A stretch of 64,000 nt of DNA from Siphonodentalium dalli (Eukaryota > Mollusca > Scaphopoda > Gadilida > Siphonodentaliidae), in the NCBI GenBank assembly GCA_032622095.1, contig CP136063.1, positions 24,616,987 to 24,680,986 on the forward strand. The letters are read 5' to 3'. Below, piece after piece: positions 22,772 to 61,594 of this stretch. How positions within the stretch are numbered: position 1 is the first letter of the stretch; every line of letters begins with the position of its first letter. A program made the position numbers and the translations under genes. The notes below the pieces were generated by a model. That model had not been told where the DNA came from. It worked only from the letters and a program-made list of their open reading frames with translations, and did not search any database.

Positions 22772-22855
22772 CCTAATTAAACATTGCATCTATGCTAAAA
22801 TATCAGTAGGTCGCTGGGAACTGGACCGGATACAAGGACTGCAGTATACAGCACA
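22772..22855 (+). CDS. ADGRV1: Exon 7: GAIN-like domain; its 3' end seeded the 37-bp array
   Basis: The 84-nt exon has acceptor TTTAATTTCAG and donor CACA|GTAAGT. It completes Phe from exon 6, adds 27 codons and leaves CA (phase 2). The peptide is LIKHCIYAKISVGRW, then ELDRIQGLQYTA. Alternating hydrophobics in 'IYAKISV' fit the move from helices to the beta part of a GAIN domain. The last 11 nt, TATACAGCACA, and the first intron bases are the unit that is repeated for the next 33 kb. Reading past the donor gives CAG TAA, an immediate in-frame stop, so use of any donor further along the array would end the protein one codon after this exon. Confidence 0.78.
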
Positions 22856-23100
22856 GTAAGTCATCATTATTCTCCTCTTGGTATACAATGCATTTAGTCG
22901 TCATCATTCTCCTCTCGATATACAGCACAGTAAGTCACCATCGTTCTCCTTTCAGTATACAACACAGTAAGTCATCATTATTCTCCTCTTGGTATACAAT
23001 GCATTTAGTCGTCATCATTCTCCTCTCAATATACAGCACAGTAAGTCATCATCATTCTCCTCTTAGTATACAGCACAGTAAGTCACCATCATTCTCCTCT
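22856..23100 (+). repeat. Degenerate proximal edge of the array
   Basis: The first units after exon 7 are the most diverged. They contain CTCCTCTTGGTATACAATGC and ATTTAGTCGTC in place of the CTCAG and GTAAG words. These occur in a block of about three units that is itself duplicated (near 22880 and 22992). Edge units escaping homogenisation is typical of satellites. Confidence 0.75.
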
Positions 23101-26100
23101 CAGTATACACACACTAAGTCACCAACATTCTCCTCTCAGTATTCAGCACAGTAAGTCACCATCATTCTCCTCTCAGTATTCAGCACAGTAAGTCACCATC
23201 ATTCTCCTCTCAGTATACAGCACAGTAAGTCATCATCATTCTCCTCTCAGTATACAGTCATGTAAGTCATCATCATTCTCCTCTCAGTATACAGTCATGT
23301 AAGTCATCATCATTCTCCTCTCAGTATACAACACAGTAAGTCACCATCATTCTCCTCTCAGTATAAAGCACAGTAAGTCACCATCATTCTCCTCTCAGTA
23401 TACAGCCATGTAAGTCATCATAATTCTCCTCTCAGTATACAACACAGTAAGTCACCATCATTCTCCTCTCAGTATTCAGCACAGGAGTCATCATCATTCT
23501 CCTCTCAGTATTCAGCACAGTAAGTCATCATCATTCTCCTTTCAGTATACAACACAGTAAGTCACCATCATTCTCCTCTCAGTATTCAGCACACTAAGTC
23601 ATCATCATTCACATCTCAGTATTCAGCACAGTAAGTCATCATCATTCTCCTCTCAGTATACAGCACAGTAAGTCATCATCATTCTCCTCTCAGTATACAG
23701 CACAGTAAGTCATCATCATTCTCCTTTCAGTATACAGCACAATAAGTCATCATCATTCTCCTCTCAGTATACAGCACAGTAAGTCACCATCATTCTCCTC
23801 TCAGTATACAGCATAGCAAGTCATCATCATTCTCCTCTCAGTATACAGCACAGTAAGTTATCATCATCCTCCTCTCAGTATACAGCACAGTAAGTCAGCA
23901 ACATTCTCCTTTCAGTATACAGCACAGTAAGTCACCATCATTCTCCTTTCAGTATACAGCACAGTAAGTCACCATCATTCTCCTCTCAGTATACAGCCAT
24001 GTAAGTCACCATCGTTCTCCTCTCAGTATACAGCACAGTAAGTCATCATCATTCTCCTCTCAGTATACAGCACAGTAAGTCATCATCATTCTCCTTTCAG
24101 TATACAGCACAATAAGTCATCATCATTCTCCTCTCAGTATACAGCACAGTAAGTCACCATCATTCTCCTCTCAGTATACAGCATAGCAAGTCATCATCAT
24201 TCTCCTCTCAGTATACAGCACAGTAAGTCACCATCATTCTCCTCTCAGTATACAGCATAGCAAGTCATCATCATTCTCCTCTCAGTATACAGCACAGTAA
24301 GTTATCATCATCCTCCTCTCAGTATACAGCACAGTAAGTCACCATCATTCTCCTCTCAGTATACAGCATAGCAAGTCATCATCATTCTCCTCTCAGTATA
24401 CAGCACAGTAAGTTATCATCATCCTCCTCTCAGTATACAGCACAGTAAGTCAGCAACATTCTCCTTTCAGTATACAGCACAGTAAGTCACCATCATTCTC
24501 CTCTCAGTATACAGCATAGCAAGTCATCATCATTCTCCTCTCAGTATACAGCACAGTAAGTCACCATCATTCTCCTCTCAGTATACAGCATAGCAAGTCA
24601 TCATCATTCTCCTCTCAGTATACAGCACAGTAAGTTATCATCATCCTCCTCTCAGTATACAGCACAGTAAGTCACCATCATTCTCCTCTCAGTATACAGC
24701 ATAGCAAGTCATCATCATTCTCCTCTCAGTATACAGCACAGTAAGTTATCATCATCCTCCTCTCAGTATACAGCACAGTAAGTCAGCAACATTCTCCTTT
24801 CAGTATACAGCACAGTAAGTCACCATCATTCTCCTTTCAGTATACAGCACAGTAAGTCACCATCATTCTCCTCTCAGTATACAGCCATGTAAGTCACCAT
24901 CGTTCTCCTATCAGTATACAGCACAGTAAGTCACCATCATTCTCCTCTCAATATACAGCACAGTAAGTCACCATCATTCTCCTTTCAGTATACAGCACAG
25001 TAAGTTATCATCATTCTCCTCTCAGTATACAGCACAGTAAGTTATCATCATTCTCCTCTCAGTATACAGCACAGTAAGTCATCATCATTCTCCTCTCAGT
25101 ATTCAGCACAGTAATTCACCATCATTCTCCTCTCAGTATTCAGCATAGTAAGTCACCATCATTCTCCTCTCAGTATACAGCACAGTAAGTCATCATCATT
25201 CTCCTCTCAGTATTCAGCACAGTAATTCACCATCATTCTCCTCTCAGTATATAGCATAGTAAGTCACCATCATTCTCCTCTCAGTATACAGCACAGTAAG
25301 TCATCATCATTCTCCTCTCAGTATTCAGCATACTAAGTCACCATCATTCTCCTCTCAGTATATAGCATAGTAAGTCACCATCATTCTCCTCTCAGTATAC
25401 AGCACAGTAAGTCACCATCATTCTCCTCTCAGTATACAGCACAGTAAGTCACCATTATTCTCCTCTCAGTATTCAGCATAGTAAGTCACCATCATTCTCC
25501 TCTCAGTATACAGCACAGTAAGTCATCATCATTCTCCTCTCAGTATTCAGCACAGTAATTCACCATCATTCTCCTCTCAGTATATAGCATAGTAAGTCAC
25601 CATCATTCTCCTCTCAGTATACAGCACAGTAAGTCATCATCATTCTCCTCTCAGTATTCAGCACAGTAATTCACCATCATTCTCCTCTCAGTATTCAGCA
25701 TAGTAAGTCACCATCATTCTCCTCTCAGTATACAGCACAGTAAGTCATCATCATTCTCCTCTCAGTATTCAGCACAGTAATTCACCATCATTCTCCTCTC
25801 AGTATATAGCATAGTAAGTCACCATCATTCTCCTCTCAGTATACAGCACAGTAAGTCATCATCATTCTCCTCTCAGTATTCAGCATACTAAGTCACCATC
25901 ATTCTCCTCTCAGTATATAGCATAGTAAGTCACCATCATTCTCCTCTCAGTATACAGCACAGTAAGTCACCATCATTCTCCTCTCAGTATACAGCACAGT
26001 AAGTCACCATTATTCTCCTCTCAGTATACAGCCATGTAAGTCACCATCATTCTCCTCTCAGTATACAGCCATGTAAGTCACCATCATTCTCCTCTCAGTA

Positions 26101-29100
26101 TATAGCACAGTAAGTCACCATCATTCTCCTCTCAGTATACAGCCATGTAAGTCACCATCATTCTCCTCTCGGTATACAGCACAGTAAGTCACCATCATTC
26201 TCCTCTCAGTATACAGCCATGTAAGTCACCATCATTCTCCTCTCAGCATACAGTACAGTAAGTCACCACCATTCTCCTCTCAGTATACAGCACAGTAAGT
26301 CACCATCATTCTCCTCTCAGTATACAGCACAGTAAGTCATCATCATTCTCCTCTCAGTATTCAGCATAGTAAGTCACCATCATTCTCCTCTCAGTATACA
26401 GCACAGTAAGTCATCATCATTCTCCTCTCAGTATACAGCCATGTAAGTCACCATCATTCTCCTCTCGGTATACAGCACAGTAAGTCACCATCATTCTCCT
26501 CTCAGTATACAGCCATGTAAGTCACCATCATTCTCCTCTCAGTATACAGCACAGTAAGTCATCATCATTCTCCTCTCAGTATTCAGCATAGTAAGTCACC
26601 ATCATTCTCCTCTCGGTATACAGCACAGTAAGTCATCATCATTCTCCTCTCAGTATACAGCCATGTAAGTCACCATCATTCTCCTCTCAGCATACAGTAC
26701 AGTAAGTCACCACCATTCTCCTCTCAGTATACAGCACAGTAAGTCACCATCATTCTCCTCTCAGTATACAGCACAGTAAGTCACCATCATTCTCCTCTCA
26801 GTATTCAGCATAGTAAGTCACCATCATTCTCCTCTCAGTATACAGCACAGTAATTCACCATCATTCTCCTCTCAGTATTCAGCATAGTAAGTCATCATCA
26901 TTCTCCTCTCAGTATTCAGCACAGTAATTCACCATCATTCTCCTCTCAGTATTCAGCATACTAAGTCACCATCATTCTCCTCTCAGTATTCAGCACAGTA
27001 AGTCACCATCATTCTCCTCTCAGTATACAGCACAGTAAGTCACCATCATTCTCCTCTCAGTATACAGCACAGTAAGTCACCATCATTCTCCTCTCAGTAT
27101 ACAGCACAGTAAGTCATCATCATTCTCCTCTCAGTATTCAGCATAGTAAGTCACCATCATTCTCCTCTCAGTATACAACACAGTAAGTCACCATCATTCT
27201 CCTCTCAGTATTCAGCACAGTAAGTCACCATCATTCTCCTCTCAGTATACAGCACAGTAAGTCACCATCATTCTCCTCTCAGTATACAGCACAGTAAGTC
27301 ACCATCATTCTCCTCTCAGTATACAGCACAGTAAGTCACCATCATTCTCCTCTCAGTATTCAGCATAGTAAGTCACCATCATTCTCCTCACAGTATACAG
27401 CACAGTAATTCACCATCATTCTCCTCTCAGTATTCAGCATAGTAAGTCATCATCATTCTCCTCTCAGTATTCAGCACAGTAATTCACCATCATTCTCCTC
27501 TCAGTATTCAGCATACTAAGTCACCATCATTCTCCTCTCAGTATATAGCATAGTAAGTCACCATCATTCTCCTCTCAGTATACAGCACAGTAAGTCACCA
27601 TCATTCTCCTCTCAGTATACAACACAGTAAGTCACCATCATTCTCCTCTCAGTATACAGCACAGTAATTCACCATCATTCTCCTCTCAGTATTCAGCATA
27701 GTAAGTCATCATCATTCTCCTCTCAGTATTCAGCACTGTAATTCACCATCATTCTCCTCTCAGTATTCAGCATACTAAGTCACCATCATTCTCCTCTCAG
27801 TATATAGCATAGTAAGTCACCATCATTCTCCTCTCAGTATACAGCACAGTAAGTCACCATCATTCTCCTCTCAGTATACAGCACAGTAAGTCACCATTAT
27901 TCTCCTCTCAGTATACAGCCATGTAAGTCACCATCATTCTCCTCTCAGTATACAGCCATGTAAGTCACCATCATTCTCCTCTCAGTATATAGCACAGTAA
28001 GTCACCATCATTCTCCTCTCAGTATACAGCCATGTAAGTCACCATCATTCTCCTCTCGGTATACAGCACAGTAAGTCACCATCATTCTCCTCTCAGTATA
28101 CAGCCATGTAAGTCACCATCATTCTCCTCTCAGCATACAGCACAGTAAGTCATCATCATTCTCCTCTCAGTATACAGCACAGTAAGTCATCATCATTCTC
28201 CTCTCAGTATACAGCCATGTAAGTCACCATCATTCTCCTCGCAGTATACAGCACAGTAAGTCATCATCATTCTACTCTCAGTATACAACACAGTAAGTAA
28301 CCATCATTCTCCCCTCAGTATACAGCACAGTAAGTCATCATCATTCTCCTCGCAGTATACAACACAGTAAGTCATCATCATTCTACTCTCAGTATACAAC
28401 ACAGTAAGTAACCATCATTCTCCCCTCAGTATACAGCACAGGAAGTCATCATCATTCTCCTCTCAGTATACAACACAGTAAGTCACCATCATTCTCCTCT
28501 CAGTATAAAGCACAGTAAGTCATCATCATTCTCTCAGTATACAGCACAGTAAGTCACCATCATTCTACTCTCAGTATACAGCCATGTAAGTCATCATCAT
28601 TCTCCTCTCAGTATACAGCACAGTAAGTCATCATCATTCTCCTCTCAGTATACAGCCATGTAAGCCGCCATCATTCTCCTCTCAGTATACAGCACAGTAA
28701 GTCATCATCATTCTCCTCTCAGTATACAGCATAGTAAGTCATCATCATTCTCCTCTCAGTATACAGCACAGTAAGTCATCATCATTCTACTCTCAGTATA
28801 CAACACAGTAAGTCATCATCATTCTCCTCTCAGTATACAGCGCAGTAAGTCATCATCATTCTCCTCTCAGTATACAGCACAGTAAGTCATCATCATTCTC
28901 CTCTCAGTATACAGCCATGTAAGTCACCATCATTCTCCTCGCAGTATACAGCACAGTAAGTCATCATCATTCTACTCTCAGTATACAACACAGTAAGTAA
29001 CCATCATTCTCCCCTCAGTATACAGCACAGGAAGTCATCATCATTCTCCTCTCAGTATACAACACAGTAAGTCACCATCATTCTCCTCTCAGTATAAAGC

Positions 29101-31079
29101 ACAGTAAGTCATCATCATTCTCTCAGTATACAGCACAGTAAGTCACCATCATTCTACTCTCAGTATACAGCCATGTAAGTCATCATCATTCTCCTCTCAG
29201 TATACAGCACACTCAGTATACAGCACAGTAAGTCACCATCATTCTCCTTTCAGTATACAACACAGTAAGTCATCAATATTCTCCTCTCAGTATACAACAC
29301 AGTAAGTCATCATCATTCTCCTTTCAGTATACAGCACATTAAGTCATCATCATTCTCCTCTCAGTATACAGCACAGTATACAGCATATTAAGTCACCATC
29401 ATTCTCCTTTCAGTATACAACACAGTAGGTCATCATCATTCTCCTTTCAGTATACAGCACAGTAAGTTATCATCATTCTCCTCTCAGTATACAGCACAGT
29501 AAGTCACCATCATTCTCCTCTCAGTATACAGCACATTAATTCATCATCATTCTCCTCTCAGTATTCAGCACAGTAAGTCACCATCATTCTCCTCTCAGTA
29601 TACAGCACAGTAAGCCATCATCATTCTCCTCTCAGTATACAACACAGTAAGTTATCATCATTCTCCTCTCAGTATACAGCACTGTAAGTCATCATCATCA
29701 TCATCCTCTCGGTATACAACACAGTAAGTCATCATCATTCTCCTCTCAGTATTCAGCACAGTAAGTCATCATTCTCCTCTCAGTATACAACACAGTAAGT
29801 CATCATCATCATCCTCTCAGTATACAGCACAGTAAGTTATCATCTCTCACCTCTCAGTATACATCATAGTAAGTCGCCATCATTCTCCTCTCAGTATACA
29901 CACACTAAGTCATCATAATTCTCCTCTCAGTATACAGCCATGTAAGTCATCATTCTCCTTTCAGTATTCAGCACAGTAAGTCACCATCATTCTCCTCTCA
30001 GTATACAGCACAGTAAGTCATCATTATTCTCCTCTCAGTATACACACACTAAGTCATCATCATTCTCCTCTCAGTATTAAGCACAGTAAGCCGCCATCAT
30101 TCTCCTCTCAGTATACAGCACAGTAAGTCATCATCATTCCCCTCTCAGTATACAACACAGTAAGTCACCATCATTCTCCTCTCAGTATACAGCACAGTAA
30201 GTCACCATCATTCTCCTCTCAGTATACAGCACAGTAAGTCACCATCATTCTCCTCTCAGTATTCAGCACAGTAAGTCACCATCATTCTCCTTTCAGTATT
30301 CAGCACAGTAAGTCACCATCATTCTCCTTTCAGTATTCAGCACAGTAAGTCACCATCATTCTCCTTTCAGTATTCAGCACAGTAAGTCACCATCATTCTC
30401 CCCTCAGTATACAGCACAGTAAGTCACCATCATTCTCCTTTCAGTATACAACACAGTAAGTCACCATCATTCTCCTCTCAGTATACAGCACAGTAAGTCA
30501 TCATCATTCTCCTCTCAGTATACAGCACAGTAAGTCATCATTATTCTCCTTTCAGTATTCAGCACAGTAAGTCACCATCATTCTCCTCTCAGTATACAGC
30601 ACAGTAAGTCATCATCATTCTCCTCTCAGTATACAGCACAGTAAGTCATCATCATTCTCCTCTCAGTATTCAGCACAGTAAGTCACCATCATTCTCCTTT
30701 CAGTATTCAGCACAGTAAGTCACCATCATTCTCCTTTCAGTATACAACACAGTAAGTCATCATCATTCTCCTCTCAGTATACAGCACAGTAAGTCATCAT
30801 CATTCTCCTCTCAGTATTCAGCACAGTAAGTCACCATCATTCTCCTTTCAGTATTCAGCACAGTAAGTCACCATCATTCTCCCCTCAGTATACAGCACAG
30901 TAAGTCACCATCATTCTCCTCTCAGTATACAGCACAGTAAGTCACCATCATTCTCCTCTCAGTATACAGCACAGTAAGTCATCATCATTCTCCTCTCAGT
31001 ATACAGCACAGTAAGTCATCATTATTCTCCTCTCAGTATACAGCACAGTAAGTCATCATCATTCTCCTCTCAGTATACA

Positions 31080-31960
31080 ACACAGTAAGTCATCATCATT
31101 CTCCTCTCAGTATACAGCACAGTAAGTCATCATCATTCTCCTCTCAGTATACAGCGCAGTAAGTCATCATCATTCTCCTCTCAGTATACAGCATAGTAAG
31201 TCATCATCATTCTCCTCTCAGTATACAGCACAGTAAGTCATCATCATTCTCCTCTCAGTATACAACACAGTAAGTCATCATCATTCTCCTCTCAGTATAC
31301 AGCACAGTAAGTCATCATCATTCTCCTCTCAGTATACAGCGCAGTAAGTCATCATCATTCTCCTCTCAGTATACAGCATAGTAAGTCATCATCATTCTCC
31401 TCTCAGTATACAGCACAGTAAGTCATCATCATTCTCCTCTCAGTATTCAGCATACTAAGTCACCATCATTCTCCTCTCAGTATACAGCACAGTAAGTCAT
31501 CATCATTCTCCTCTCAGTATACAACACAGTAAGTCATCATCATTCTCCTCTCAGTATACAGCACAGTAAGTCATCATCATTCTCCTCTCAGTATACAGCG
31601 CAGTAAGTCATCATCATTCTCCTCTCAGTATACAGCATAGTAAGTCATCATCATTCTCCTCTCAGTATACAGCACAGTAAGTCATCATCATTCTCCTCTC
31701 AGTATACAACACAGTAAGTCATCATCATTCTCCTCTCAGTATACAGCACAGTAAGTCATCATCATTCTCCTCTCAGTATACAGCGCAGTAAGTCATCATC
31801 ATTCTCCTCTCAGTATACAGCATAGTAAGTCATCATCATTCTCCTCTCAGTATACAGCACAGTAAGTCATCATCATTCTCCTCTCAGTATACAACACAGT
31901 AAGTCATCATCATTCTCCTCTCAGTATACAGCACAGTAAGTCATCATCATTCTCCTCTCA
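31080..31960 (+). repeat. Higher-order repeat of five- and seven-unit blocks
   Basis: The marker variant GCGCAG occurs at about 31154, 31339, 31598 and 31783, spacings of 185, 259 and 185 bp (5, 7 and 5 units). Flanking variants (CAACACAG before, CATAGTAAG after) keep the same order. This shows multi-unit duplication rather than single-unit slippage. Confidence 0.75.
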
Positions 31961-34900
31961 GTATACAGCCATGTAAGCCGCCATCATTCTCCTCGCAGTA
32001 TACAACACAGTAAGTCATCATCATTCTACTCTCAGTATACAGCACAGTAAGTCATCATCATTCTCCTCGCAGTATACAGCCATGTAAGTCATCATCATTC
32101 TACTCTCAGTATACAACACAGTAAGTCATCATCATTCTCCTCGCAGTATACAGCACAGTAAGTCACCATCATTCTCCTCTCAGTATACAACACAGTAAGT
32201 CATCATCATTCTCCTCGCAGTATACAGCACAGTAAGTCATCATCATTCTCCTCGCAGTATACAGCACAGTAAGTCATCATCATTCTCCTCTCAGTATACA
32301 GCCATGTAAGTTATCATCATTCTCCTCTCAGTATACAGCATAGTAAGTAACCATCATTCTCCTCTCAGTATACAGCACAGTAAGTCATCATCATTCTCCT
32401 CGCAGTATACAGCACAGTAAGTCACCATCATTCTCCTCTCAGTATACAACACAGTAAGTCATCATCATTCTCCTCGCAGTATACAGCACAGTAAGCCGCC
32501 ATCATTCTCCTCGCAGTATACAACACAGTAAGTCATCATCATTCTCCTCTCAGTATACAGCCATGTAAGTTATCATCATTCTCCTCTCAGTATACAGCCA
32601 TGTAAGCCGCCATCATTCTCCTCGCAGTATACAGCCATGTAAGTTATCATCATTCTCCTCTCAGTATACAGCCATGTAAGCCGCCATCATTCTCCTCGCA
32701 GTATACAGCCATGTAAGTTATCATCATTCTCCTCTCAGTATACAGCCATGTAAGTTATCATCATTCTCCTCTCAGTATACAGCATACTCAGTATACAGCA
32801 CAGTAAGTCATCATCATTCTCCTCTCAGTATACAGCCATGTAAGTTATCATCATTCTCCTCTCAGTATACAGCACAGTAAGTAACCATCATTCTCCTCTC
32901 AGTATACAGCACAGTAAGTCATCATCATTCTCCTCTCAGTATACAGCACAGTAAGTAACCATCATTCTCCTCTCAGTATACAGCATAGTAAGTAATCATC
33001 ATTCTCCTCTCAGTATACAACACAGTAAGTCACCATCATTCTCCTCGCAGTATACAGCACAGTAAGTTATCATCATTCTCCTCTCAGTATACAACACAGT
33101 AAGTCATCATCATTCTCCTCTCAGTATACAGCCATGTAAGCCGCCATCATTCTCCTCTCAGTATACAGCACAGTAAGTCACCATCATTCTACTCTCAGTA
33201 TACAGCACAGTAAGTTATCATCATTCTCCTCTCAGTATACAGCACAGTAAGTTATCATCATTCTCCTCTCAGTATACAGCCATGTAAGCCGCCATCATTC
33301 TCCTCTCAGTATACAACACAGTAAGTCATCATCATTCTCCTCTCAGTATACAGCCATGTAAGCCGCCATCATTCTCCTCTCAGTATACAGCACAGTAAGT
33401 TATCATCATTCTCCTCTCAGTATACAACACAGTAAGTCATCATCATTCTCCTCTCAGTATACAACACAGTAAGTCACCATCATTCTCCTCTCAGTATACA
33501 GCACAGTAAGTCATCATCATTCTCCTCTCAGTATACAGCCATGTAAGCCGCCATCATTCTCCTCTCAGTATACAGCATAGTAAGTAATCATCATTCTCCT
33601 CTCAGTATACAACACAGTAAGTCATCATCATTCTCCTCTCAGTATACAGCCATGTAAGCCGCCATCATTCTCCTCGCAGTATACAGCACAGTAAGTCATC
33701 ATCATTCTCCTCTCAGTATACAGCACAGTAAGTCATCATCATTCTCCTCTCAGTATACAGCACAGTAAGTCATCATCATTCTCCTCTCAGTATACAGCAC
33801 AGTAAGTTATCATCATTCTCCTCTCAGTATACAGCACAGTAAGTCATCATCATTCTCCTCTCAGTATACAGCACAGTAAGTCATCATCATTCTCCTCTCA
33901 GTATACAGCACAGTAAGTCACCATCATTCTCCTCTCAGTATACAGCACAGTAAGTCATCATCATTCTCCTCTCAGTATACAGCACAGTAAGTCATCATCA
34001 TTCTCCTCTCAGTATACAGCACAGTAAGTCATCATCATTCTCCTCGCAGTATACAGCACAGTAAGTCATCATCATTCTCCTCTCAGTATACAGCACAGTA
34101 AGTCATCATTATTCTCCTCTCAGTATACAGCCATGTAAGTCACCATCATTCTCCTCTCAGTATACAGCACAGTAAGTTATCATCATTCTCCTCTCAGTAT
34201 ACAGCCATGTAAGCCGCCATCATTCTCCTCTCAGTATACAGCACAGTAAGTTATCATCATTCTCCTCTCAGTATACAGCACAGTAAGTCATCATCATTCT
34301 CCTCTCAGTATTCAGCACAGTAAGTCACCATCATTCTCCTCTCAGTATACAGCCATGTAAGCCGCCATCATTCTCCTCTCAGTATACAACACAGTAAGTC
34401 ATCATCATTCTCCTCTCAGTATACAGCCATGTAAGCCGCCATCATTCTCCTCTCAGTATACAGCACAGTAAGTTATCATCATTCTCCTCTCAGTATACAA
34501 CACAGTAAGTCATCATCATTCTCCTCTCAGTATACAACACAGTAAGTCATCATCATTCTCCTCTCAGTATACAACACAGTAAGTCATCATCATTCTCCTC
34601 TCAGTATACAGCCATGTAAGCCGCCATCATTCTCCTCGCAGTATACAGCACAGTAAGTTATCATCATTCTCCTCTCAGTATACAGCCATGTAAGCCGCCA
34701 TCATTCTCCTCGCAGTATACAGCACAGTAAGTCATCATCATTCTCCTCTCAGTATACAGCACAGTAAGTCATCATCATTCTCCTCGCAGTATACAACACA
34801 GTAAGTCATCATCATTCTCCTCTCAGTATACAGCATAGTAAGTAATCATCATTCTCCTCTCAGTATACAGCCATGTAAGCCGCCATCATTCTCCTCGCAG

Positions 34901-45100: not shown

Positions 45101-45469
45101 TAAGTCATCATCATTCTCCTCTCAGTATACAACACAGTAAGTCATCATCATTCTCCTCTCAGTATACAGCACAGTAAGTCATCATCATTCTACTCTCAGC
45201 ATACAGCACAGTAAGTCATCATCATTCTACTCTCAGCATACAGCACAGTAAGTCATCATCATTCTCCTCTCAGTATACAGCACAGTAAGTCATCATCATT
45301 CTCCTCTCAGTATACAGCGCAGTAAGTCATCATCATTCTCCTCTCAGTATACAACACAGTAAGTCATCATCATTCTCCTCTCAGTATACAGCGCAGTAAG
45401 TCATCATCATTCTACTCTCAGCATACAGCACAGTAAGTCATCATCATTCTCCTCTCAGTATACAGCACA

Positions 45470-48400
45470 GTAAGTCATCATCATTCTCCTCTCAGTATAC
45501 AGCCATGTAAGTCACCATCATTCTCCTCTCAGTATACAGCCATGTAAGTCACCATCATTCTCCTCTCAGTATACAGCACAGTAAGTCATCATCATTCTCC
45601 TCTCAGTATACAGCCATGTAAGTCACCATCATTCTCCTCTCAGTATACAGCACAGTAAGTCATCATCATTCTACTCTCAGTATACAACACAGTAAGTCAT
45701 CATCATTCTCCTCTCAGTATACAGCGCAGTAAGTCATCATCATTCTCCTCTCAGTATACAACACAGTAAGTCACCATCATTCTCCTCTCAGTATACAGCA
45801 CAGTAAGTCATCATCATTCTCCTCTCAGTATACAGCGCAGTAAGTCATCATCATTCTCCTCTCAGTATACAACACAGTAAGTCACCATCATTCTCCTCTC
45901 AGTATACAGCACAGTAAGTCATCATCATTCTACTCTCAGTATACAGCACAGTAAGTCATCATCATTCTCCTCTCAGTATACAGCACAGTAAGTCATCATC
46001 ATTCTCCTCTCAGTATACAGCACAGTAAGTCATCATCATTCTCCTCTCAGTATACAGCACAGTAAGTCATCATCATTCTCCTCTCAGTATACAGCACAGT
46101 AAGTCATCATCATTCTCCTCTCAGTATACAGCACAGTAAGTCATCATCATTCTCCTCTCAGTATACAGCACAGTAAGTCATCATCATTCTCCTCTCAGTA
46201 TAAAGCACAGTAAGTTATCATCATTCTCCTCTCAGTATACAGCACAGTAAGTCATCATCATTCTCCTCTCAGTATACAGCACAGTAAGCCGCCATCATTC
46301 TCCTCGCAGTATACAGCACAGTAAGTCATCATCATTCTACTCTCAGTATACAGCACAGTAAGTCATCATCATTCTCCTCTCAGTATACAGCACAGTAAGT
46401 CATCATCATTCTCCTCTCAGTATACAGCATAGTAAGTCATCATCATTCTCCTCTCAGTATACAGCCATGTAAGCCGCCATCATTCTCCTCGCAGTATACA
46501 GCACAGTAAGTCATCATCATTCTACTCTCAGTATACAGCACAGTAAGTCATCATCATTCTCCTCTCAGTATACAGCACAGTAAGTCATCATCATTCTCCT
46601 CTCAGTATACAGCCATGTAAGCCGCCATCATTCTCCTCGCAGTATACAGCACAGTAAGTCATCATCATTCTACTCTCAGTATACAGCACAGTAAGTCATC
46701 ATCATTCTCCTCTCAGTATACAGCACAGTAAGTCATCATCATTCTACTCTCAGTATACAGCACAGTAAGTCATCATCATTCTACTCTCAGTATACAACAC
46801 AGTAAGTCACCATCATTCTCCTCTCAGTATACAGCCATGTAAGCCGCCATCATTCTCCTCTCAGTATACAGCACAGTAAGTCATCATCATTCTACTTTCA
46901 GTATACAGCACAGTAAGTCATCATCATTCTCCTCTCAGTATACAGCACAGTAAGTCATCATCATTCTACTCTCAGTATACAGCACAGTAAGTCATCATCA
47001 TTCTCCTCTCAGTATACAACACAGTAAGTCACCATCATTCTCCTCTCAGTATACAACACAGTAAGTCATCATCATTCTCCTCTCAGTATACAGCCATGTA
47101 AGCCGCCATCATTCTCCTCTCAGTATACAGCACAGTAAGTCATCATCATTCTCCTCTCAGTATACAACACAGTAAGTCATCATCATTCTCCTCTCAGTAT
47201 ACAGCCATGTAAGCCGCCATCATTCTCCTCTCAGTATACAGCACAGTAAGTCATCATCATTCTACTTTCAGTATACAGCACAGTAAGTCATCATCATTCT
47301 ACTCTCAGTATACAACACAGTAAGTTATCATCATTCTCCTTTCAGTATAAAGCACAGTAAGTCATAATCATTATCTCAGTATACAGCACAGTAAGTCATC
47401 ATCATTCTCCTCTCAGTATACAGCCATGTAAGTCACCATCATTCTCCTCGCAGTATACAGCACAGTGAGTCATCATCATTCTACTCTCAGTATACAACAC
47501 AGTAAGTTATCATCATTCTCCTTTCAGTATAAAGCACAGTAAGTCATAATCATTATCTCAGTATACAGCACAGTAAGTCACCATCATTCTCCTCTCAGTA
47601 TTCAGCACAGTAAGTCATCATCATTATCCTCTCAGTATAAAGCACAGTAAGTCATCATCATTCTCCTCTCAGTATACAGCACAGTAAGTCATCATCATTC
47701 TCCTCTCAGTATACAACACAGTAAGTCATCATCATTCTCCTCTCAGTATTCAGCACAGTAAGTCATCATCATTATCCTCTCAGTATACAGCCATGTAAGT
47801 CATCATCATTCTCCTCTCAGTATACAGCCATGTAAGTCATCATCATTCTCCTCTCAGTATACAGCACACTCAGTATACAGCACATTAAGTCATCATCATT
47901 CTCCTCTCAGTATACAGCACAGTAAGTCATCATCATTCTCCTCTCAGTATACAGCACAGTAAGTCACCACCATTCTCCTCTCAGTATACAGCATAGTAAG
48001 TCATCATCATTCTCCTCTCAGTATACAGCACAGTAAGTCATCATCATTCTACTCTCAGTATACAACACAGTAAGTTATCATCATTCTCCTTTCAGTATAA
48101 AGCACAGTAAGTCATAATCATTATCTCAGTATACAGCACAGTAAGTCATCATCATTCTCCTCTCAGTATACAGCCATGTAAGTCACCATCATTCTCCTCG
48201 CAGTATACAGCCATGTAAGTCACCATCATTCTCCTCGCAGTATACAGCACAGTAAGTCATCATCATTCTCCTCTCAGTATACAGCACAGTAAGTCATCAT
48301 CATTCTCCTCTCAGTATACAGCCATGTAAGTCACCATCATTCTCCTCTCAGTATACAGCCATGTAAGTCACCATCATTCTCCTCTCAGTATACAGCACAG

Positions 48401-50930
48401 TAAGTCATCATCATTCTCCTCTCAGTATACAGCCATGTAAGTCACCATCATTCTCCTCTCAGTATACAGCACAGTAAGTCATCATCATTCTACTCTCAGT
48501 ATACAACACAGTAAGTCATCATCATTCTCCTCTCAGTATACAGCGCAGTAAGTCATCATCATTCTCCTCTCAGTATACAACACAGTAAGTCACCATCATT
48601 CTCCTCTCAGTATACAGCACAGTAAGTCATCATCATTCTCCTCTCAGTATACAGCGCAGTAAGTCATCATCATTCTCCTCTCAGTATACAACACAGTAAG
48701 TCACCATCATTCTCCTCTCAGTATACAGCACAGTAAGTCATCATCATTCTACTCTCAGTATACAGCACAGTAAGTCATCATCATTCTCCTCTCAGTATAC
48801 AGCACAGTAAGTCATCATCATTCTCCTCTCAGTATACAGCACAGTAAGTCATCATCATTCTCCTCTCAGTATACAGCACAGTAAGTCATCATCATTCTCC
48901 TCTCAGTATACAGCACAGTAAGTCATCATCATTCTCCTCTCAGTATACAGCACAGTAAGTCATCATCATTCTCCTCTCAGTATACAGCACAGTAAGTCAT
49001 CATCATTCTCCTCTCAGTATAAAGCACAGTAAGTTATCATCATTCTCCTCTCAGTATACAGCACAGTAAGTCATCATCATTCTCCTCTCAGTATACAGCA
49101 CAGTAAGCCGCCATCATTCTCCTCGCAGTATACAGCACAGTAAGTCATCATCATTCTACTCTCAGTATACAGCACAGTAAGTCATCATCATTCTCCTCTC
49201 AGTATACAGCACAGTAAGTCATCATCATTCTCCTCTCAGTATACAGCACAGTAAGTCATCATCATTCTCCTCTCAGTATACAACACAGTAAGTCATCATC
49301 ATTCTACTCTCAGTATACAGCACAGTAAGTCATCATCATTCTCCTCTCAGTATACAGCCATGTAAGCCGCCATCATTCTCCTCGCAGTATACAGCACAGT
49401 AAGTCATCATCATTCTACTCTCAGTATACAGCACAGTAAGTCATCATCATTCTCCTCTCAGTATACAGCACAGTAAGTCATCATCATTCTACTCTCAGTA
49501 TACAGCACAGTAAGTCATCATCATTCTACTCTCAGTATACAACACAGTAAGTCACCATCATTCTCCTCTCAGTATACAGCCATGTAAGCCGCCATCATTC
49601 TCCTCTCAGTATACAGCACAGTAAGTCATCATCATTCTACTTTCAGTATACAGCACAGTAAGTCATCATCATTCTCCTCTCAGTATACAGCCATGTAAGC
49701 CGCCATCATTCTCCTCGCAGTATACAGCACAGTAAGTCATCATCATTCTACTCTCAGTATACAGCACAGTAAGTCATCATCATTCTCCTCTCAGTATACA
49801 ACACAGTAAGTCACCATCATTCTCCTCTCAGTATACAGCCATGTAAGCCGCCATCATTCTCCTCTCAGTATACAGCACAGTAAGTCATCATCATTCTCCT
49901 CTCAGTATACAGCACAGTAAGTCATCATCATTCTACTTTCAGTATACAGCACAGTAAGTCATCATCATTCTACTCTCAGTATACAACACAGTAAGTTATC
50001 ATCATTCTCCTTTCAGTATAAAGCACAGTAAGTCATAATCATTATCTCAGTATACAGCACAGTAAGTCATCATCATTCTCCTCTCAGTATACAGCCATGT
50101 AAGTCACCATCATTCTCCTCGCAGTATACAGCACAGTAAGTCATCATCATTCTACTCTCAGTATACAACACAGTAAGTTATCATCATTCTCCTTTCAGTA
50201 TAAAGCACAGTAAGTCATAATCATTATCTCAGTATACAGCACAGTAAGTCACCATCATTCTCCTCTCAGTATTCAGCACAGTAAGTCATCATCATTATCC
50301 TCTCAGTATAAAGCACAGTAAGTCATCATCATTCTCCTCTCAGTATACAGCACAGTAAGTCATCATCATTCTCCTCTCAGTATACAACACAGTAAGTCAT
50401 CATCATTCTCCTCTCAGTATTCAGCACAGTAAGTCATCATCATTATCCTCTCAGTATACAGCCATGTAAGTCATCATCATTCTCCTCTCAGTATACAGCC
50501 ATGTAAGTCATCATCATTCTCCTCTCAGTATACAGCACACTCAGTATACAGCACATTAAGTCATCATCATTCTCCTCTCAGTATACAGCACAGTAAGTCA
50601 TCATCATTCTCCTCTCAGTATACAGCACAGTAAGTCACCACCATTCTCCTCTCAGTATACAGCATAGTAAGTCATCATCATTCTCCTCTCAGTATACAGC
50701 ACAGTAAGTCATCATCATTCTACTCTCAGTATACAACACAGTAAGTTATCATCATTCTCCTTTCAGTATAAAGCACAGTAAGTCATAATCATTATCTCAG
50801 TATACAGCACAGTAAGTCATCATCATTCTCCTCTCAGTATACAGCCATGTAAGTCACCATCATTCTCCTCGCAGTATACAGCCATGTAAGTCACCATCAT
50901 TCTCCTCGCAGTATACAGCACAGTAAGTCA
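45470..50930 (+). repeat. Large block duplication of about 2.7-2.8 kb inside the array
   Basis: The stretch with paired GCGCAG units near 45720 is echoed near 48540. The group with TATAAAGCACAG plus CATAATCATTATCTCAG near 47340-47560 is echoed near 50000-50230. The order of variant units is conserved across the two blocks, with shifts of roughly 2.8 and 2.7 kb. Confidence 0.65.
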
Positions 50931-51301
50931 TCATCATTCTACTCTCAGTATACAGCACAGTAAGTCATCATCATTCTACTCTCAGTATACAGCACAGTAA
51001 GTCATCATCATTCTCCTCTCAGTATACAGCCATGTAAGTCACCATCATTCTCCTCGCAGTATACAGCACAGTAAGTCATCATCATTCTCCTCGCAGTATA
51101 CAGCACAGTAAGTCATCATCATTCTCCTCTCAGTATACAGCCATGTAAGTCACCATCATTCTCCTCGCAGTATACAGCACAGTAAGTCATCATCATTCTA
51201 CTCTCAGTATACAGCACAGTAAGTCATCATCATTCTCCTCTCAGTATACAGCACAGTAAGTCATCATCATTCTACTCTCAGTATACAACACAGTAAGTTA
51301 T

Positions 51302-54300
51302 CATCATTCTCCTCTCAGTATACAGCCATGTAAGTCACCATCATTCTCCTCGCAGTATACAGCACAGTAAGTCATCATCATTCTACTCTCAGTATACAAC
51401 ACAGTAAGTTATCATCATTCTCCTTTCAGTATAAAGCACAGTAAGTCATAATCATTATCTCAGTATACAGCACAGTAAGTCACCATCATTCTCCTCTCAG
51501 TATACAGCACAGTAAGTCACCATCATTCTCCTCTCAGTATTCAGCACAGTAAGTCATCATCATTATCCTCTCAGTATAAAGCACAGTAAGTCATCATCAT
51601 TCTCCTCTCAGTATACAGCACAGTAAGTCATCATCATTCTCCTCTCAGTATACAACACAGTAAGTCATCATCATTCTCCTCTCAGTATTCAGCACAGTAA
51701 GTCATCATCATTCTCCTCTCAGTATTCAGCACAGTAAGTCATCATCATTATCCTCTCAGTATAAAGCACAGTAAGTCATCATCATTCTCCTCTCAGTATA
51801 CAGCACAGTAAGTCATCATCATTATCCTCTCAGTATAAAGCACAGTAAGTCACCATCATTCTCCTTTCAGTATAAAGCACAGTAAGTCATCATCGTTATT
51901 TCAGTATTCAGCACAGTAAGTCACCACCATTCTCCTCTCAGTATACAGCACAGTAAGTCATCATCATTTTCCTCTCAGTATACAACACAGTAAGTTATCA
52001 TCATTCTCCTCTCAGTATAAAGCACAGTAAGTCATCATCATTCTCCTCTCAGTATACAGCCATGTAAGTCACCATCATTCTCCTCTCAGTATACAGCACA
52101 GTAAGTCATCATCATTCTCCTCTCAGTATACAACACAGTAAGTCATCATCATTCTCCTCTCAGTATACAGCACAGTAAGTCATCATCATTATCCTCTCAG
52201 TATACAGCCATGTAAGTCATCATCATTCTCCTCTCAGTATACAGCACAGTAAGTCATCATCATTCTACTCTCAGTATACAACACAGTAAGTCATCATCAT
52301 TCTCCTCTCAGTATACAGCCATGTAAGTCATCATCATTCTCCTCTCAGTATACAGCACAGTAAGTCATCATCATTCTCCTCTCAGTATACAGCACAGTAA
52401 GTCATCATCATTCTCCTCTCAGTATACAGCGCAGTAAGTCATCATCATTCTCCTCTCAGTATACAGCATAGTAAGTCATCATCATTCTCCTCTCAGTATA
52501 CAGCACAGTAAGTCATCATCATTCTCCTCTCAGTATACAGCACAGTAAGTCATCATCATTCTCCTCTCAGTATACAACACAGTAAGTCATCATCATTCTA
52601 CTCTCAGTATACAACACAGTAAGTCATCATCATTCTCCTCTCAGTATACAGCCATGTAAGCCGCCATCATTCTCCTCTCAGTATACAGCACAGTAAGTCA
52701 TCATCATTCTCCTCTCAGTATACAGCACAGTAAGTCATCATCATTCTACTCTCAGTATACAACACAGTAAGTTATCATCATTCTCCTTTCAGTATAAAGC
52801 ACAGTAAGTCATAATCATTATCTCAGTATACAGCACAGTAAGTCACCATCATTCTCCTCTCAGTATACAGCACAGTAAGTCATCATCATTCTCCTCTCAG
52901 TATACAGCCATGTAAGTCACCATCATTCTCCTCTCAGTATACAGCACAGTAAGTCATCATCATTCTCCTCTCAGTATACAGCCATGTAAGTCACCATCAT
53001 TCTCCTCTCAGTATACAGCACAGTAAGTCATCATCATTCTCCTCTCAGTATACAGCCATGTAAGTCACCATCATTCTCCTCTCAGTATACAGCCATGTAA
53101 GCCGCCATCATTCTCCTCTCAGTATACAGCACAGTAAGTCATCATCATTCTACTCTCAGTATACAGCACAGTAAGTCATCATCATTCTCCTCTCAGTATA
53201 CAACACAGTAAGTCATCATCATTCTCCTCTCAGTATACAGCACAGTAAGTCATCATCATTCTCCTCTCAGTATACAGCACAGTAAGTCATCATCATTCTC
53301 CTCTCAGTATACAGCACAGTAAGTCATCATCATTCTCCTCTCAGTATACAGCACAGTAAGTCATCATCATTCTACTCTCAGTATACAGCACAGTAAGTCA
53401 TCATCATTCTCCTCTCAGTATACAGCACAGTAAGTCATCATCATTCTCCTCTCAGTATACAACACAGTAAGTCATCATCATTCTCCTCTCAGTATACAAC
53501 ACAGTAAGTCATCATCATTCTCCTCTCAGTATACAACACAGTAAGTCATCATCATTCTCCTCTCAGTATACAGCACAGTAAGTCATCATCATTCTCCTCT
53601 CAGTATACAGCACAGTAAGTCATCATCATTCTCCTCTCAGTATACAGCACAGTAAGTCATCATCATTCTCCTCTCAGTATACAGCACAGTAAGTCATCAT
53701 CATTCTACTCTCAGTATACAGCACAGTAAGTCATCATCATTCTCCTCTCAGTATACAGCACAGTAAGTCATCATCATTCTACTCTCAGTATACAGCACAG
53801 TAAGTCATCATCATTCTCCTCTCAGTATACAGCACAGTAAGTCATCATCATTCTCCTCTCAGTATACAACACAGTAAGTCATCATCATTCTACTCTCAGT
53901 ATACAGCACAGTAAGTCATCATCATTCTACTCTCAGTATACAGCACAGTAAGTCATCATCATTCTCCTCTCAGTATACAACACAGTAAGTCATCATCATT
54001 CTACTCTCAGTATACAACACAGTAAGTCACCATCATTCTCCTCTCAGTATACAGCCATGTAAGCCGCCATCATTCTCCTCTCAGTATACAGCACAGTAAG
54101 TCATCATCATTCTACTTTCAGTATACAACACAGTAAGTTATCATCATTCTCCTTTCAGTATAAAGCACAGTAAGTCATAATCATTATCTCAGTATACAGC
54201 ACAGTAAGTCATCATCATTCTCCTCTCAGTATACAGCCATGTAAGTCACCATCATTCTCCTCGCAGTATACAGCACAGTAAGTCATCATCATTCTACTCT

Positions 54301-55690
54301 CAGTATACAACACAGTAAGTTATCATCATTCTCCTTTCAGTATAAAGCACAGTAAGTCATAATCATTATCTCAGTATACAGCACAGTAAGTCACCATCAT
54401 TCTCCTCTCAGTATTCAGCACAGTAAGTCATCATCATTATCCTCTCAGTATAAAGCACAGTAAGTCATCATCATTCTCCTCTCAGTATACAGCACAGTAA
54501 GTCATCATCATTCTCCTCTCAGTATACAACACAGTAAGTCATCATCATTCTCCTCTCAGTATTCAGCACAGTAAGTCACCATCATTCTCCTCTCAGTATA
54601 CAGCATAGTAAGTCATCATCATTCTCCTCTCAGTATACAGCCATGTAAGTCATCATCATTCTCCTCTCAGTATACAGCACACTCAGTATACAGCACATTA
54701 AGTCATCATCATTCTCCTCTCAGTATACAGCACAGTAAGTCATCATCATTCTCCTCTCAGTATACAGCACAGTAAGTCACCACCATTCTCCTCTCAGTAT
54801 ACAGCATAGTAAGTCATCATCATTCTCCTCTCAGTATACAGCACAGTAAGTCATCATCATTCTACTCTCAGTATACAACACAGTAAGTTATCATCATTCT
54901 CCTTTCAGTATAAAGCACAGTAAGTCATAATCATTATCTCAGTATACAGCACAGTAAGTCATCATCATTCTCCTCTCAGTATACAGCCATGTAAGTCACC
55001 ATCATTCTCCTCGCAGTATACAGCACAGTAAGTCATCATCATTCTACTCTCAGTATACAACACAGTAAGTTATCATCATTCTCCTTTCAGTATAAAGCAC
55101 AGTAAGTCATAATCATTATCTCAGTATACAGCACAGTAAGTCACCATCATTCTCCTCTCAGTATACAGCACAGTAAGTCACCATCATTCTCCTCTCAGTA
55201 TTCAGCACAGTAAGTCATCATCATTATCCTCTCAGTATAAAGCACAGTAAGTCATCATCATTCTCCTCTCAGTATACAGCACAGTAAGTCATCATCATTC
55301 TCCTCTCAGTATACAACACAGTAAGTCATCATCATTCTCCTCTCAGTATTCAGCACAGTAAGTCATCATCATTCTCCTCTCAGTATTCAGCACAGTAAGT
55401 CATCATCATTATCCTCTCAGTATAAAGCACAGTAAGTCATCATCATTCTCCTCTCAGTATACAGCACAGTAAGTCATCATCATTATCCTCTCAGTATAAA
55501 GCACAGTAAGTCACCATCATTCTCCTTTCAGTATAAAGCACAGTAAGTCATCATCGTTATTTCAGTATTCAGCACAGTAAGTCACCACCATTCTCCTCTC
55601 AGTATACAGCACAGTAAGTCATCATCATTTTCCTCTCAGTATACAACACAGTAAGTTATCATCATTCTCCTCTCAGTATAAAGCACAGTA
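51302..55690 (+). repeat. Terminal duplication, offset 3,661 bp, ending at the array edge
   Basis: By eye, 51302-52029 and 54963-55690 are identical, including the rare unit CATCGTTATTTCAG and TCATCATTTTCC. In the second copy the array stops right after AAGCACAGTAA. The first copy continues as normal array, so the distal boundary cuts through a duplicated block. Confidence 0.75.
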
Positions 55691-55691
55691 A

Positions 55692-57114: not shown

Positions 57115-57549
57115 AGGCCCCAACCCCACCCCCCTGGAATACGGAATACCACTTAGCACAGAGGGTGGAATACGGAATACCAGTTAACAGCCATATGGAA
57201 TTTTCCGGATAAATGTTCTATTGCCGTACGAACGCCGGTCATCCCGCAGTGTCCACATCTAAAATGATCTAAAATGAAGATGATCGACGATCTGTATATA
57301 TGTCAAACTGTTAATTTATTGTGACAAAAATCGCATTTAAATTATTATTATGATCATTTTTTGGAAGGTGTCGAAGGTCGGCGTACGAATACCGGTATTT
57401 TTGGAATACCGAATACCTCCTAACAGAGGGGCCGGAATACGGCGTACCTCATAACAGGGCATGGAATACGGCGTACGAAAAGGGGGTGGGGGCCCCATGA
57501 ACATCACCAACTTCAACTGGGGAACTTCAATCTTATCCTAAGTCTCAAC

Positions 57550-57640
57550 AGAATGATGTCCCCGGAGGGTGAATTTGATGAGGCTAGCCCGATGTACATT
57601 CATCACCTGGGGATCTCATTCTGCAAATGACAGACACCAT
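57550..57640. repeat. Palindromic end of an inner element, left
   Basis: CAGAATGATGTCCCCGGAGG at 57550 and CCTGGGGATCTCATTCTG further on are inverted. The outer word CTGCAAATGACAG (from about 57622) is the reverse of CTGTCATTTGCAG at 59924-59936, next to a second palindrome of the same type. Together they mark the ends of an inner nested element. Confidence 0.5.
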
Positions 57641-57759
57641 TGGCTTGCACTGCGTTCATGTGTAATACATCCCTATATATATATTCTCCCCCGTCATTCC
57701 ATCGGAGGACTATATAGTCATGACCACCGTCCGTATATGTGTACGTCGGTGTGTGCGTC

Positions 57760-58100: not shown

Positions 58101-58198
58101 AGTGCTGTTGGCCCTTTCTCGACACATTATAGATCATGTCATGAATCTCTACTATTAGCAACACGCACGTAGAGATCATATTCCACCAGTACAAAACC

Positions 58199-58577: not shown

Positions 58578-58579
58578 TT

Positions 58580-59677: not shown

Positions 59678-59825
59678 TTAACCCTTTCAGTGCCAAGTCC
59701 AATTTTTGCTTGATCATTCGAATTTATTGATTATAATAATGTGATACATTGATGGAAAGAGCTCTAAAAATGATCAAGGATATATGTTTTTATACAAAAA
59801 TCGGAATTGGCACTGAAAGGGTTAA
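59678..59825. mobile_element. Short piggyBac-like MITE
   Basis: TTAA at 59678-59681 and 59822-59825. Ends CCCTTTCAGTGCCAAGTCC and the inverted GGAATTGGCACTGAAAGGG. It is 148 bp including flanks, with no internal hairpin of the longer type. The ends resemble those of the 9075 copy (AGTGCCA). Confidence 0.75.
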
Positions 59826-61590: not shown

Positions 61591-61594
61591 GGGA

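What the first reader, a model, noticed from the sequence alone, without database searches (positions are those of the whole stretch)
22845..55690. A splice junction turned into a 33-kb satellite
Every consensus unit holds a pyrimidine tract plus CAG, an 11-nt micro-exon identical to the end of exon 7, and a GTAAGT donor, all in host-gene sense. The transcript would thus present several hundred tandem acceptors and donors inside one intron. I know of no named class of satellite built from a gene's own exon/intron border. Possible roles: splice-site decoy, sponge for U1/U2AF/PTB-like factors, recursive-splicing ladder, or a tolerated accident. Seen directly: unit content and identity with exon 7. 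Inferred: any effect on splicing.
Basis: partly seen in the sequence, partly recalled or inferred. Interest (0 to 1): 0.92.

Follow-up and report, generated by a model that had tools for sequence, protein, structure and literature searches.

The report
Splice junction copied into giant minisatellite
The border between one predicted exon and its intron in an animal receptor gene has been copied head to tail about 950 times, which puts hundreds of consensus-like splice signals inside a single intron; this is an extreme case of a known but little-known kind of repeat called a 'mirage', and a ready natural test of how cells ignore false splice sites.

Summary
The array is real: 37-bp unit, about 893 units at 22842-55691, and it resumes past the window for some 62 more after a 10.76-kb transposon-like insertion. 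Unit 1 is the junction itself: the last 14 nt of a predicted exon plus the first 23 nt of its intron. That exon's splice sites score weakly, but it joins in phase to the next exons of an ADGRV1-like adhesion GPCR. Duplicating those 37 nt sets the intron's pyrimidine tract before the exon's CAG, so one slippage event makes an acceptor. All 906 genome matches to the unit core lie in this locus or in a second copy of the region 130 Mb away, where the array starts at the same exon but is only 6.5 kb. Rare variants hit AG/GT as chance predicts (7 of 55, 5.9 expected); common variants lean the other way. This one is far larger than those I could read about. Effects on splicing are untested; geometry (11-nt 'exon', 26-nt 'intron') suggests most sites are silent.

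The parts
22772..22855 (+).
   Evidence: open frame, acceptor tttaatttcag (score 0.8, weak), donor CACA|GTAAGT (3.0); seen only at lowered thresholds. Its end phase fits the next predicted exon (A|GGT GAT GAT...), giving ...QGLQYTAQGDDLFRVP...; identical in the second copy
22842..22878 (+). Founder unit: 14 nt exon end (CAGTATACAGCACA) + 23 nt intron start (gtaagtcatcattattctcctct) = 37 nt
   Evidence: read directly and from edge comparison of both copies
22842..55691 (+). 37-bp mirage-type array, about 893 units; the consensus unit holds pyrimidine tract-CAG, 11-nt pseudo-exon and GTAAGT
55692..64000 (.). Insertion into the array (runs on to position 66450 in window coordinates, outside the window): imperfect terminal inverted repeats CCCAGTRGGCACAYGACGTC, 2-bp AA duplication; the array resumes at 66451-68703
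   Evidence: the second copy's array is uninterrupted
14839..14946 (+). Predicted upstream host exon, TLKNLDTIAQDQLDDDQVTMVENVLKKITDEGLER, perhaps the start of the GAIN domain
   Evidence: splice-bounded open frame at lowered thresholds, identical in the second copy; domain call is by eye
12066..12169 (+). Predicted upstream host exon resembling the end of a Calx-beta repeat (FYVQLMNPTNGA)
   Evidence: the Pfam search gave no hit, likeness judged by eye
10731..10935 (+). Predicted upstream host exon resembling the start of a Calx-beta repeat
   Evidence: Pfam gave no hit
1002..1108 (+). Predicted upstream host exon resembling part of a Calx-beta repeat
   Evidence: Pfam gave no hit

Best explanation
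This is a giant 'mirage' minisatellite in an ADGRV1-like gene. Shown: a 37-nt stretch made of the last 14 nt of a predicted coding exon and the first 23 nt of its intron forms unit 1, and the repeats run on from it in register. Inferred: one tandem duplication of this stretch set the intron's pyrimidine-rich start directly before the exon's CAG, so each added unit automatically became acceptor + 11-nt pseudo-exon + donor. Unequal exchange or slippage then grew the array, to about 35 kb in one copy of the locus and 6.5 kb in the other. Inferred: the gene is spliced from the exon end (22855) to the next exon (69804) over a 46.9-kb intron, and the array is mostly silent because the donor and the next acceptor are 26 nt apart and the pseudo-exon is 11 nt long, both below what animal spliceosomes normally handle (general knowledge, not tested). 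It is tolerated rather than selected.
For: Unit 1 overlaps the exon end and intron start exactly. Exon phases fit across the array and beyond: 22772-22855, 69804-69867, 70872-70952, 80656-80786 and 83084-83294. The exons at 69804 and 70872 are two of only three sense loci with such strong sites in 67.8 kb of non-array DNA, against one in antisense. Host identity: PDB 9fte (ADGRV1) E=1.7e-10, the match lying in the TM4-5 exon, weak GPS and 7tm_2 matches. The repeat core was found nowhere else: 906 genome matches = 762 + 144 in the two loci, all + strand. Both copies share both array edges but differ in length, about 176 against about 948 TRF copies. Identical 10-unit blocks recur at lags such as 21, 73, 77, 100 and 113 units. 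Rare variants: 7 of 55 at AG/GT, 5.9 expected. Precedents.
Against: No RNA, so exon borders, splicing and silence are unproven. The key exon scores weakly and candidates of that weakness are common in introns (27 rows in 7.3 kb). No outgroup, so the order (exon first, array later) rests on logic. Host label: GPS and 7tm_2 are below their cut-offs, and the top Pfam hit of the GPS-TM1 exon was DUF997, also below cut-off. Common variants avoid the splice columns: mean divergence 1.6% in 8 core columns against 6.9% elsewhere, permutation P=0.016, but rotation 3 of 37 and rank test P=0.08, which could hint at selection to keep the sites. Units nearest the exon have more broken sites, which could hint at selection against near sites.
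Confidence: 0.72

Rival explanations
1. The array is a selected splicing device: a sink or delay for U1/U2AF-type factors, or a recursive-splicing ladder that tunes how much full-length receptor is made.
For: Hundreds of near-consensus sites almost only in sense; the most frequent variants spare the splice columns; inclusion of exactly three (or six) pseudo-exons keeps the reading frame.
Against: Rare variants hit AG/GT at the neutral rate; array length differs about five-fold between the two copies; the geometry (11 nt/26 nt) is poor for splicing; inclusion of 1, 2, 4 or 5 units gives stops.
Confidence: 0.08
2. The array is a burden: it lowers correct splicing of the gene, and the sites nearest the exon are being broken by selection.
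For: Units 2-50 of the long array have 15 of 49 broken AG or GT against 37 of 842 further on; in both copies the first two array acceptors after the exon are dead; the last five full units of each block are intact.
Against: Edge units of satellites are commonly less homogenised; the 15 broken units are of 8 types; in the short copy the excess is not significant, 9 of 49 against 13 of 125, P=0.2; the far block beyond the insertion also has many broken donors, GT kept in 40 of 46 body units.
Confidence: 0.12
3. Satellite first: a tandem array came to lie beside the exon and the gene adopted its first GTAAGT as donor, so the exon end is satellite-derived; or the predicted exon is no exon and the likeness to a border is chance.
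For: Sequence alone cannot give the order; no outgroup was available; the exon's own sites score weakly.
Against: The unit core was found nowhere else in the genome, and the exon end joins in frame to a strong exon, a one-in-three fit by phase alone.
Confidence: 0.1
4. Assembly effects: the array length, or the second copy 130 Mb away, is an artefact (for instance an unpurged second haplotype placed elsewhere).
For: The two copies are colinear where probed over some 275 kb with identity varying from 92 to about 100%, which also fits two haplotypes.
Against: No N gaps in the stretches checked; homology stops on the right inside gap-free sequence; the array is present in both copies with shared edges.
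Confidence: 0.05

Closest known systems
'Mirage' minisatellites of amphioxus (Adh3, globin BflGb6/BflGb9, troponin C; similar repeats in PGBD5)
   Same: Tandem repeats that span an exon/intron border; many units carry AG/GT; copy number differs between haplotypes; edge units escape homogenisation (PMC3087553 passages; PMC3902484 passage).
   Different: There 6 and 3 units in the two BflGb6 haplotypes, with units of 10-72 bp (Adh3) or 150-160 bp. Here about 955 units and 35 kb in one copy; nearly every unit forms a full acceptor + 11 nt + donor.
CBS 31-bp VNTR at the exon 13/intron 13 border (human)
   Same: VNTR on an exon/intron border; more repeats go with lower enzyme activity (PMC5188458 passage; PMC1395315 table).
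   Different: 31-bp unit, described in the passage as in non-coding sequence. Its copy number of about 16-21 and its use of repeated donors are recalled; the primary paper was not held.
Intron gain by tandem duplication (Rogers model; ATP2A1; potato RdRp; 24-bp fission yeast repeats)
   Same: Duplication across or near a border creates new splice signals at once (PMC4974935 abstract and introduction).
   Different: Those make an intron that is used; here hundreds of potential sites, with no evidence of use.
Human internal tandem repeats at exon/intron borders in segmental duplications
   Same: Border repeats that vary between duplicated copies and can create introns (PMC2812944 passages).
   Different: On average 30-bp units repeated 4 times, 160 bp in all.
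Satellite-containing giant introns of Drosophila Y genes (kl-3, kl-5)
   Same: Satellite DNA inside introns that must be transcribed (PMC6508621 listing; PMC11207136 abstract).
   Different: Those introns are megabase-scale; derivation from the gene's own splice junction is not mentioned in what I saw.

Membership tests
Mirage minisatellite | Tandem repeat unit spans an exon/intron border of the host gene | tested here: met
   unit 1 = predicted exon end 14 nt + intron start 23 nt; the border itself lacks RNA proof
Mirage minisatellite | Units carry AG and/or GT splice signals | tested here: met
   1017 of 1074 deletion-free units keep both
Mirage minisatellite | Length differs between haplotypes or copies | tested here: met
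   about 35.1 kb against 6.5 kb; whether haplotype or paralogue is open
Mirage minisatellite | Edge units excluded from homogenisation | tested here: met
   second unit and last unit divergent from consensus and shared by both copies
Mirage minisatellite | Does not disturb normal splicing | not testable with these tools
   no RNA data
Mirage minisatellite | Somatic instability (reported at Adh3) | not testable with these tools
   needs reads from tissues
ADGRV1 (adhesion GPCR V1) | 7TM part related to ADGRV1 | tested here: met
   phmmer to PDB 9fte, E=1.7e-10, match in the TM4-5 exon outside the window; 7tm_2 19.5 bits, cut-off 20.6
ADGRV1 (adhesion GPCR V1) | GPS motif before TM1 | tested here: inconclusive
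   PF01825 19.3 bits, cut-off 22.5; DUF997 scored higher on the same exon, 23.3 bits, cut-off 26.3; sequence CVYYD...W...C...CSCKHLTHYAV fits by eye
ADGRV1 (adhesion GPCR V1) | Calx-beta repeats upstream | tested here: inconclusive
   three exons look alike by eye, no Pfam hit
FIRRM (DUF4487) | DUF4487 domain in the host gene | tested here: not met
   weak hit E=0.005, but the genome's only match over the cut-off lies on C9; the hit was taken as chance
Zero-length recursive splice site (ratchet point) | AG directly followed by GT | tested here: not met
   AG and GT are 11 nt apart in the consensus

The most novel reading that the evidence does not exclude
The array is a length-coded splicing rheostat: several hundred copies of the exon's own donor and of an emergent acceptor occupy U1 and U2AF-type factors along a 47-kb intron, so that array length (35 kb against 6.5 kb) sets the rate or fidelity of joining the two exons of the receptor's GAIN domain; occasional inclusion of three 11-nt pseudo-exons would even yield an in-frame receptor variant with 11 extra residues.
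Probability: 0.08. Interest if true: 0.85.

Novelty: new variant of a known kind. Interest (0 to 1): 0.5.

Why it matters
The locus is a natural experiment in splice-site choice. A donor is followed by hundreds of copies of its own sequence and by hundreds of pyrimidine-tract acceptors, with two array lengths in one assembly. It tests directly whether spacing (11-nt exon, 26-nt intron) is enough to silence consensus-like sites. It also shows how one slippage event across an exon/intron border can turn out complete splice signals, as in tandem-duplication models of intron birth. If the organism is not a cephalochordate, it widens the known range of mirages.

Tried and rejected
FIRRM as host gene: a weak DUF4487 hit (E=0.005) was rejected because the genome's only DUF4487 match over the cut-off lies on C9.

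An exon at about 15098-15222: most of it matches a dispersed repeat with over 100 places among the 139 matches, so I do not count it; this puts the number '7' in doubt. A candidate exon near L006:7799-7936 (VLTDAVTSIG...) lies in a 4.4-kb stretch missing from the second copy, with no splice-bounded candidate found for it; dropped. Candidate exons between 55692 and 66450 (such as 58834-59034) lie in the inserted element; dropped.

Chance control for the exons: at the lowered thresholds needed to see the key exon, introns give many false rows (27 in 7.3 kb), so its sites alone prove nothing; at strict thresholds (acceptor over 3.5, donor over 6.5) only the loci at 12066, 69804 and 70872 appear in sense and one in antisense.

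Selection for the splice columns: column permutation gives P=0.016, but rotations of the same pattern give 3 of 37, the rank test 0.08, and rare variants show no depletion; treated as unproven. Selection against near-exon sites: strong in the long copy by raw counts, but pseudo-replicated and not significant in the short copy.

Pfam scans of the window's + strand found nothing useful (of the part before the array, only one frame per stretch was scanned before position 8502; the minus strand not at all), nor did scans of 20 kb downstream. Pfam and PDB searches with the joined GAIN-domain exons gave weak DUF997 and GPS hits and no PDB hit. The colinear copy could not be settled as paralogue or haplotype: the probe at 24750001 listed no partner near 154 Mb, those at 24850001 and 23700001 fell in repeats, and probes fetched at 24570001 and 24150001 were not searched. 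An intronic 27-bp minisatellite in abalone TSSK1-like (PMC6905558 passages) was not described as spanning a border.
Full report
What is there. Tandem Repeats Finder reports one array at 22842-55691, period 37, 886.5 copies, 90% matches. A cyclic alignment to the consensus CAGTATACAGCACAGTAAGTCATCATCATTCTCCTCT gives 893 units in this block, 860 of them gapless. In the same block 740 units read [CT]AG + TAT + 8 nt + GTAAGT; in 419 of these the 11 nt are TATACAGCACA, the others being variants such as TATACAACACA (113) and TATACAGCCAT (78). Over all three blocks (1131 units), of 1074 units without deletions 1044 keep AG, 1044 keep GT, 1017 keep both and 934 keep GTAAGT. Simple splice matrices (human-like weights written from recall) give 248 donor-like sites per 10 kb in sense, 0.3 antisense and 18 in upstream flank. 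GC skew is -0.44 to -0.50 in the 2-kb steps that lie wholly in the array.

The array is longer than the window shows. At 55692 a 10,759-bp insertion begins, with imperfect terminal inverted repeats (CCCAGTAGGCACACGACGTC and CCCAGTGGGCACATGACGTC) and a 2-bp AA duplication; the array resumes at 66451 in window coordinates and runs to 68703 by TRF, some 62 more units. In the second copy of the region the array is uninterrupted.

The host exon is a supported prediction. I had no RNA, so I looked for exons with splice sites, an open frame and fitting phase. Downstream of the array: 69804-69867 (GDDLFRVPMQIPNMRNVDSSQ), 70872-70952 (CFDFHVIEYTSEQWFSKSSEPELLGSK), 80656-80786 (IISFGLKDRSSSYSENPATFTINIPEDPSRISGPYSKVNLKKA; weaker, with other possible starts) and 83084-83294 (CVYYD...CSCKHLTHYAV..., a GPS-like motif and first membrane helix). 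The exon at 22772-22855 ends with two bases over, and the exon at 69804 begins with the one needed; the chain reads ...WELDRIQGLQYTA-Q-GDDLFRVPMQIPNM.... A control bears on this: with strict site scores, sense strands of 67.8 kb of non-array DNA around the array give only the loci at 12066, 69804 and 70872, antisense one. So the two exons after the array are hardly chance. The exon at 22772-22855 is weaker: acceptor 0.8, donor 3.0, and at such thresholds introns give many false candidates (27 rows in 7.3 kb); its support is the phase fit (one in three by chance), the sense of the joined protein, and its identity in both copies.

Which gene. Further exons carry 7TM helices; the joined query matches ADGRV1 (PDB 9fte, E=1.7e-10, the match lying in the exon at 90752-90909). 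GPS and 7tm_2 Pfam matches fall just below their curated cut-offs (19.3 against 22.5; 19.5 against 20.6); on the GPS-TM1 exon a family of unknown function, DUF997, scored higher, also below its cut-off (23.3 against 26.3). No Pfam hit was found for the Calx-beta-like exons, and no PDB hit for the GAIN exons. I call the host ADGRV1-like. The intron that holds the array would run from 22856 to 69803, 46.9 kb. 'Exon 7' as a number is not confirmed, since a piece that looks like an upstream exon (about 15098-15222) is mostly a dispersed repeat.

How the unit arose. Unit 1 is the host's own sequence: 14 nt of exon (CAGTATACAGCACA) and 23 nt of intron (gtaagtcatcattattctcctct), 37 nt in all (22842-22878). 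When such a stretch is duplicated in tandem, the pyrimidine-rich end of the first copy comes to stand before the CAG of the second, which makes an acceptor that did not exist before. So every unit becomes acceptor + 11 nt + donor by register alone. This is inference, but it is economical, and it resembles the tandem-duplication route to intron gain, including a duplication across an exon/intron border in potato (PMC4974935: abstract and introduction read).

Where else it occurs. A 22-nt core with up to two mismatches has 906 matches in the 2.23-Gb genome, all on the + strand (withheld or unassembled stretches would not show). Counting locally, 762 lie in this locus and 144 in a second locus at C3:154.475-154.481 Mb, 906 in all, none outside the arrays. 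The second locus is a copy of the whole region: exon and first intron bases identical over 72 nt; aligned pieces of more than 250 bases and over 92% alike sum to 39.5 kb with 1.6% mismatches, gaps not counted, so this is a floor. Colinearity was probed, not read throughout: 24450001 (95%), 24606987, and piece by piece from there to about 24726700, after which no further forward match over 250 bases was found in the next 14 kb and 8 kb of gap-free sequence. The probe at 24750001 listed no partner near 154 Mb; those at 24850001 and 23700001 fell in repeats; two more fetched probes were not searched. Ten exons compared between copies show 13 base differences in 1236 nt, 6 silent and 7 changing the protein, and no stop. 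It may be a segmental duplication or a second haplotype placed elsewhere; I cannot tell. In either case the array there is 6.5 kb (about 176 units) against some 35.1 kb here, with both edges shared. So it predates the split and has changed length about five-fold since.

How it evolves. Local comparison of 10-unit blocks in the long array finds identical blocks at many lags (for example 21, 73, 77, 100, 109 and 113 units): repeated segmental duplication by unequal exchange or slippage, with no single higher-order period. There are 154 distinct unit types, partial and gapped ones included, 55 of them seen once; 147 of 176 units in the short array have a type also found in the long one.

Is there selection on the splice signals? 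Rare unit types (one or two copies) with a one-step parent give 55 events (11 rare types had none and were left out); 7 fall on AG/GT (5.9 expected) and 13 on CAG+GTAAG (11.9 expected), so there is no depletion. Against this, common variants avoid the eight core columns (mean divergence 1.6% against 6.9%; column permutation P=0.016; but 3 of 37 rotations, the true register counted, do as well and the rank test gives P=0.08). Linked variants make these tests optimistic. Near the exon the sites are worse: among the first five units AG is kept in 2 of 5 and GT in 3 of 5 in the long array, 3 of 5 and 3 of 5 in the short one (unit 1, the junction itself, counted), against 862 of 877 and 845 of 877 in the body of the long array; the last five full units of each block are intact. 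Units 2-50 have 15 of 49 broken against 37 of 842 in the long copy, but 9 of 49 against 13 of 125 (P=0.2) in the short one, and the 15 are of only 8 types. Broken sites also occur far from the exon: in the block beyond the insertion GT is kept in 40 of 46 body units. Edge decay and selection near the true donor cannot be told apart here.

What it most likely does. The donor of a unit and the acceptor of the next are 26 nt apart, and the pseudo-exon has 11 nt; from general knowledge both are below usual animal limits. I expect most array sites to be silent and the gene to splice over them. If single pseudo-exons were used, one, two, four or five copies would bring stops soon after; three or six keep the frame.

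Comparison with what is known. There is one: 'mirages', minisatellite-like tandem duplications of exon/intron borders in amphioxus Adh3 and globin genes. Passages in PMC3087553 say that many units hold AG/GT signals, that RT-PCR suggests normal splicing, that clusters are unstable in length (6 and 3 units in two haplotypes), and that edge units escape homogenisation. A passage in PMC3902484 adds PGBD5 and troponin C. The first mirage paper itself was not held. The human CBS 31-bp VNTR lies at the exon 13/intron 13 border (PMC5188458 passage; PMC1395315 table), and human border repeats averaging 30 bp x 4 can form introns (PMC2812944 passages). The present case meets the sequence features I could test. 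It differs in scale (about 955 units, 35 kb) and in that nearly every unit has all the signals. In the ten literature searches made (several lists were cut) I saw no listing of a mirage of this size or of one in ADGRV1; most subscription papers are not in that library.

Verdict.

Noticed in passing
55692-66450 in window coordinates (the window holds 55692-64000): Transposon-like insertion with CCCAGT...ACTGGG ends, a 121-bp tandem block near one end (55755-57112) and an 83-bp tandem block near the other (65908-66436); the second copy's array lacks it.
   Followed up: partly
C3:24450001-24726700 and C3:154282865-154520450 (window region and its copy): Some 275 kb of sequence, colinear where probed, present twice on one chromosome, identity 92 to about 100%; segmental duplication or second haplotype placed 130 Mb away.
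   Followed up: partly
units 2-50, about 22879-24690: Splice signals nearest the host exon are broken more often than in the body of the long array, and the first two array acceptors are dead in both copies.
   Followed up: yes
80781-80793 in window coordinates (outside the window, in L011): A later predicted exon of the same gene ends in AGCACA|gtaagtc, the same 13 bases as the end of the array's host exon and its donor; probably coincidence.
   Followed up: no
3858-4602: Separate tandem array, 150-bp unit, about 5 copies.
   Followed up: no
6720-7493, minus strand: Open frames that look by eye like a hAT-type transposase; not searched.
   Followed up: no
15098-15300: Dispersed repeat with more than 100 places in the genome that supplies a splice-bounded open frame; possible exonised repeat or false exon.
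   Followed up: partly
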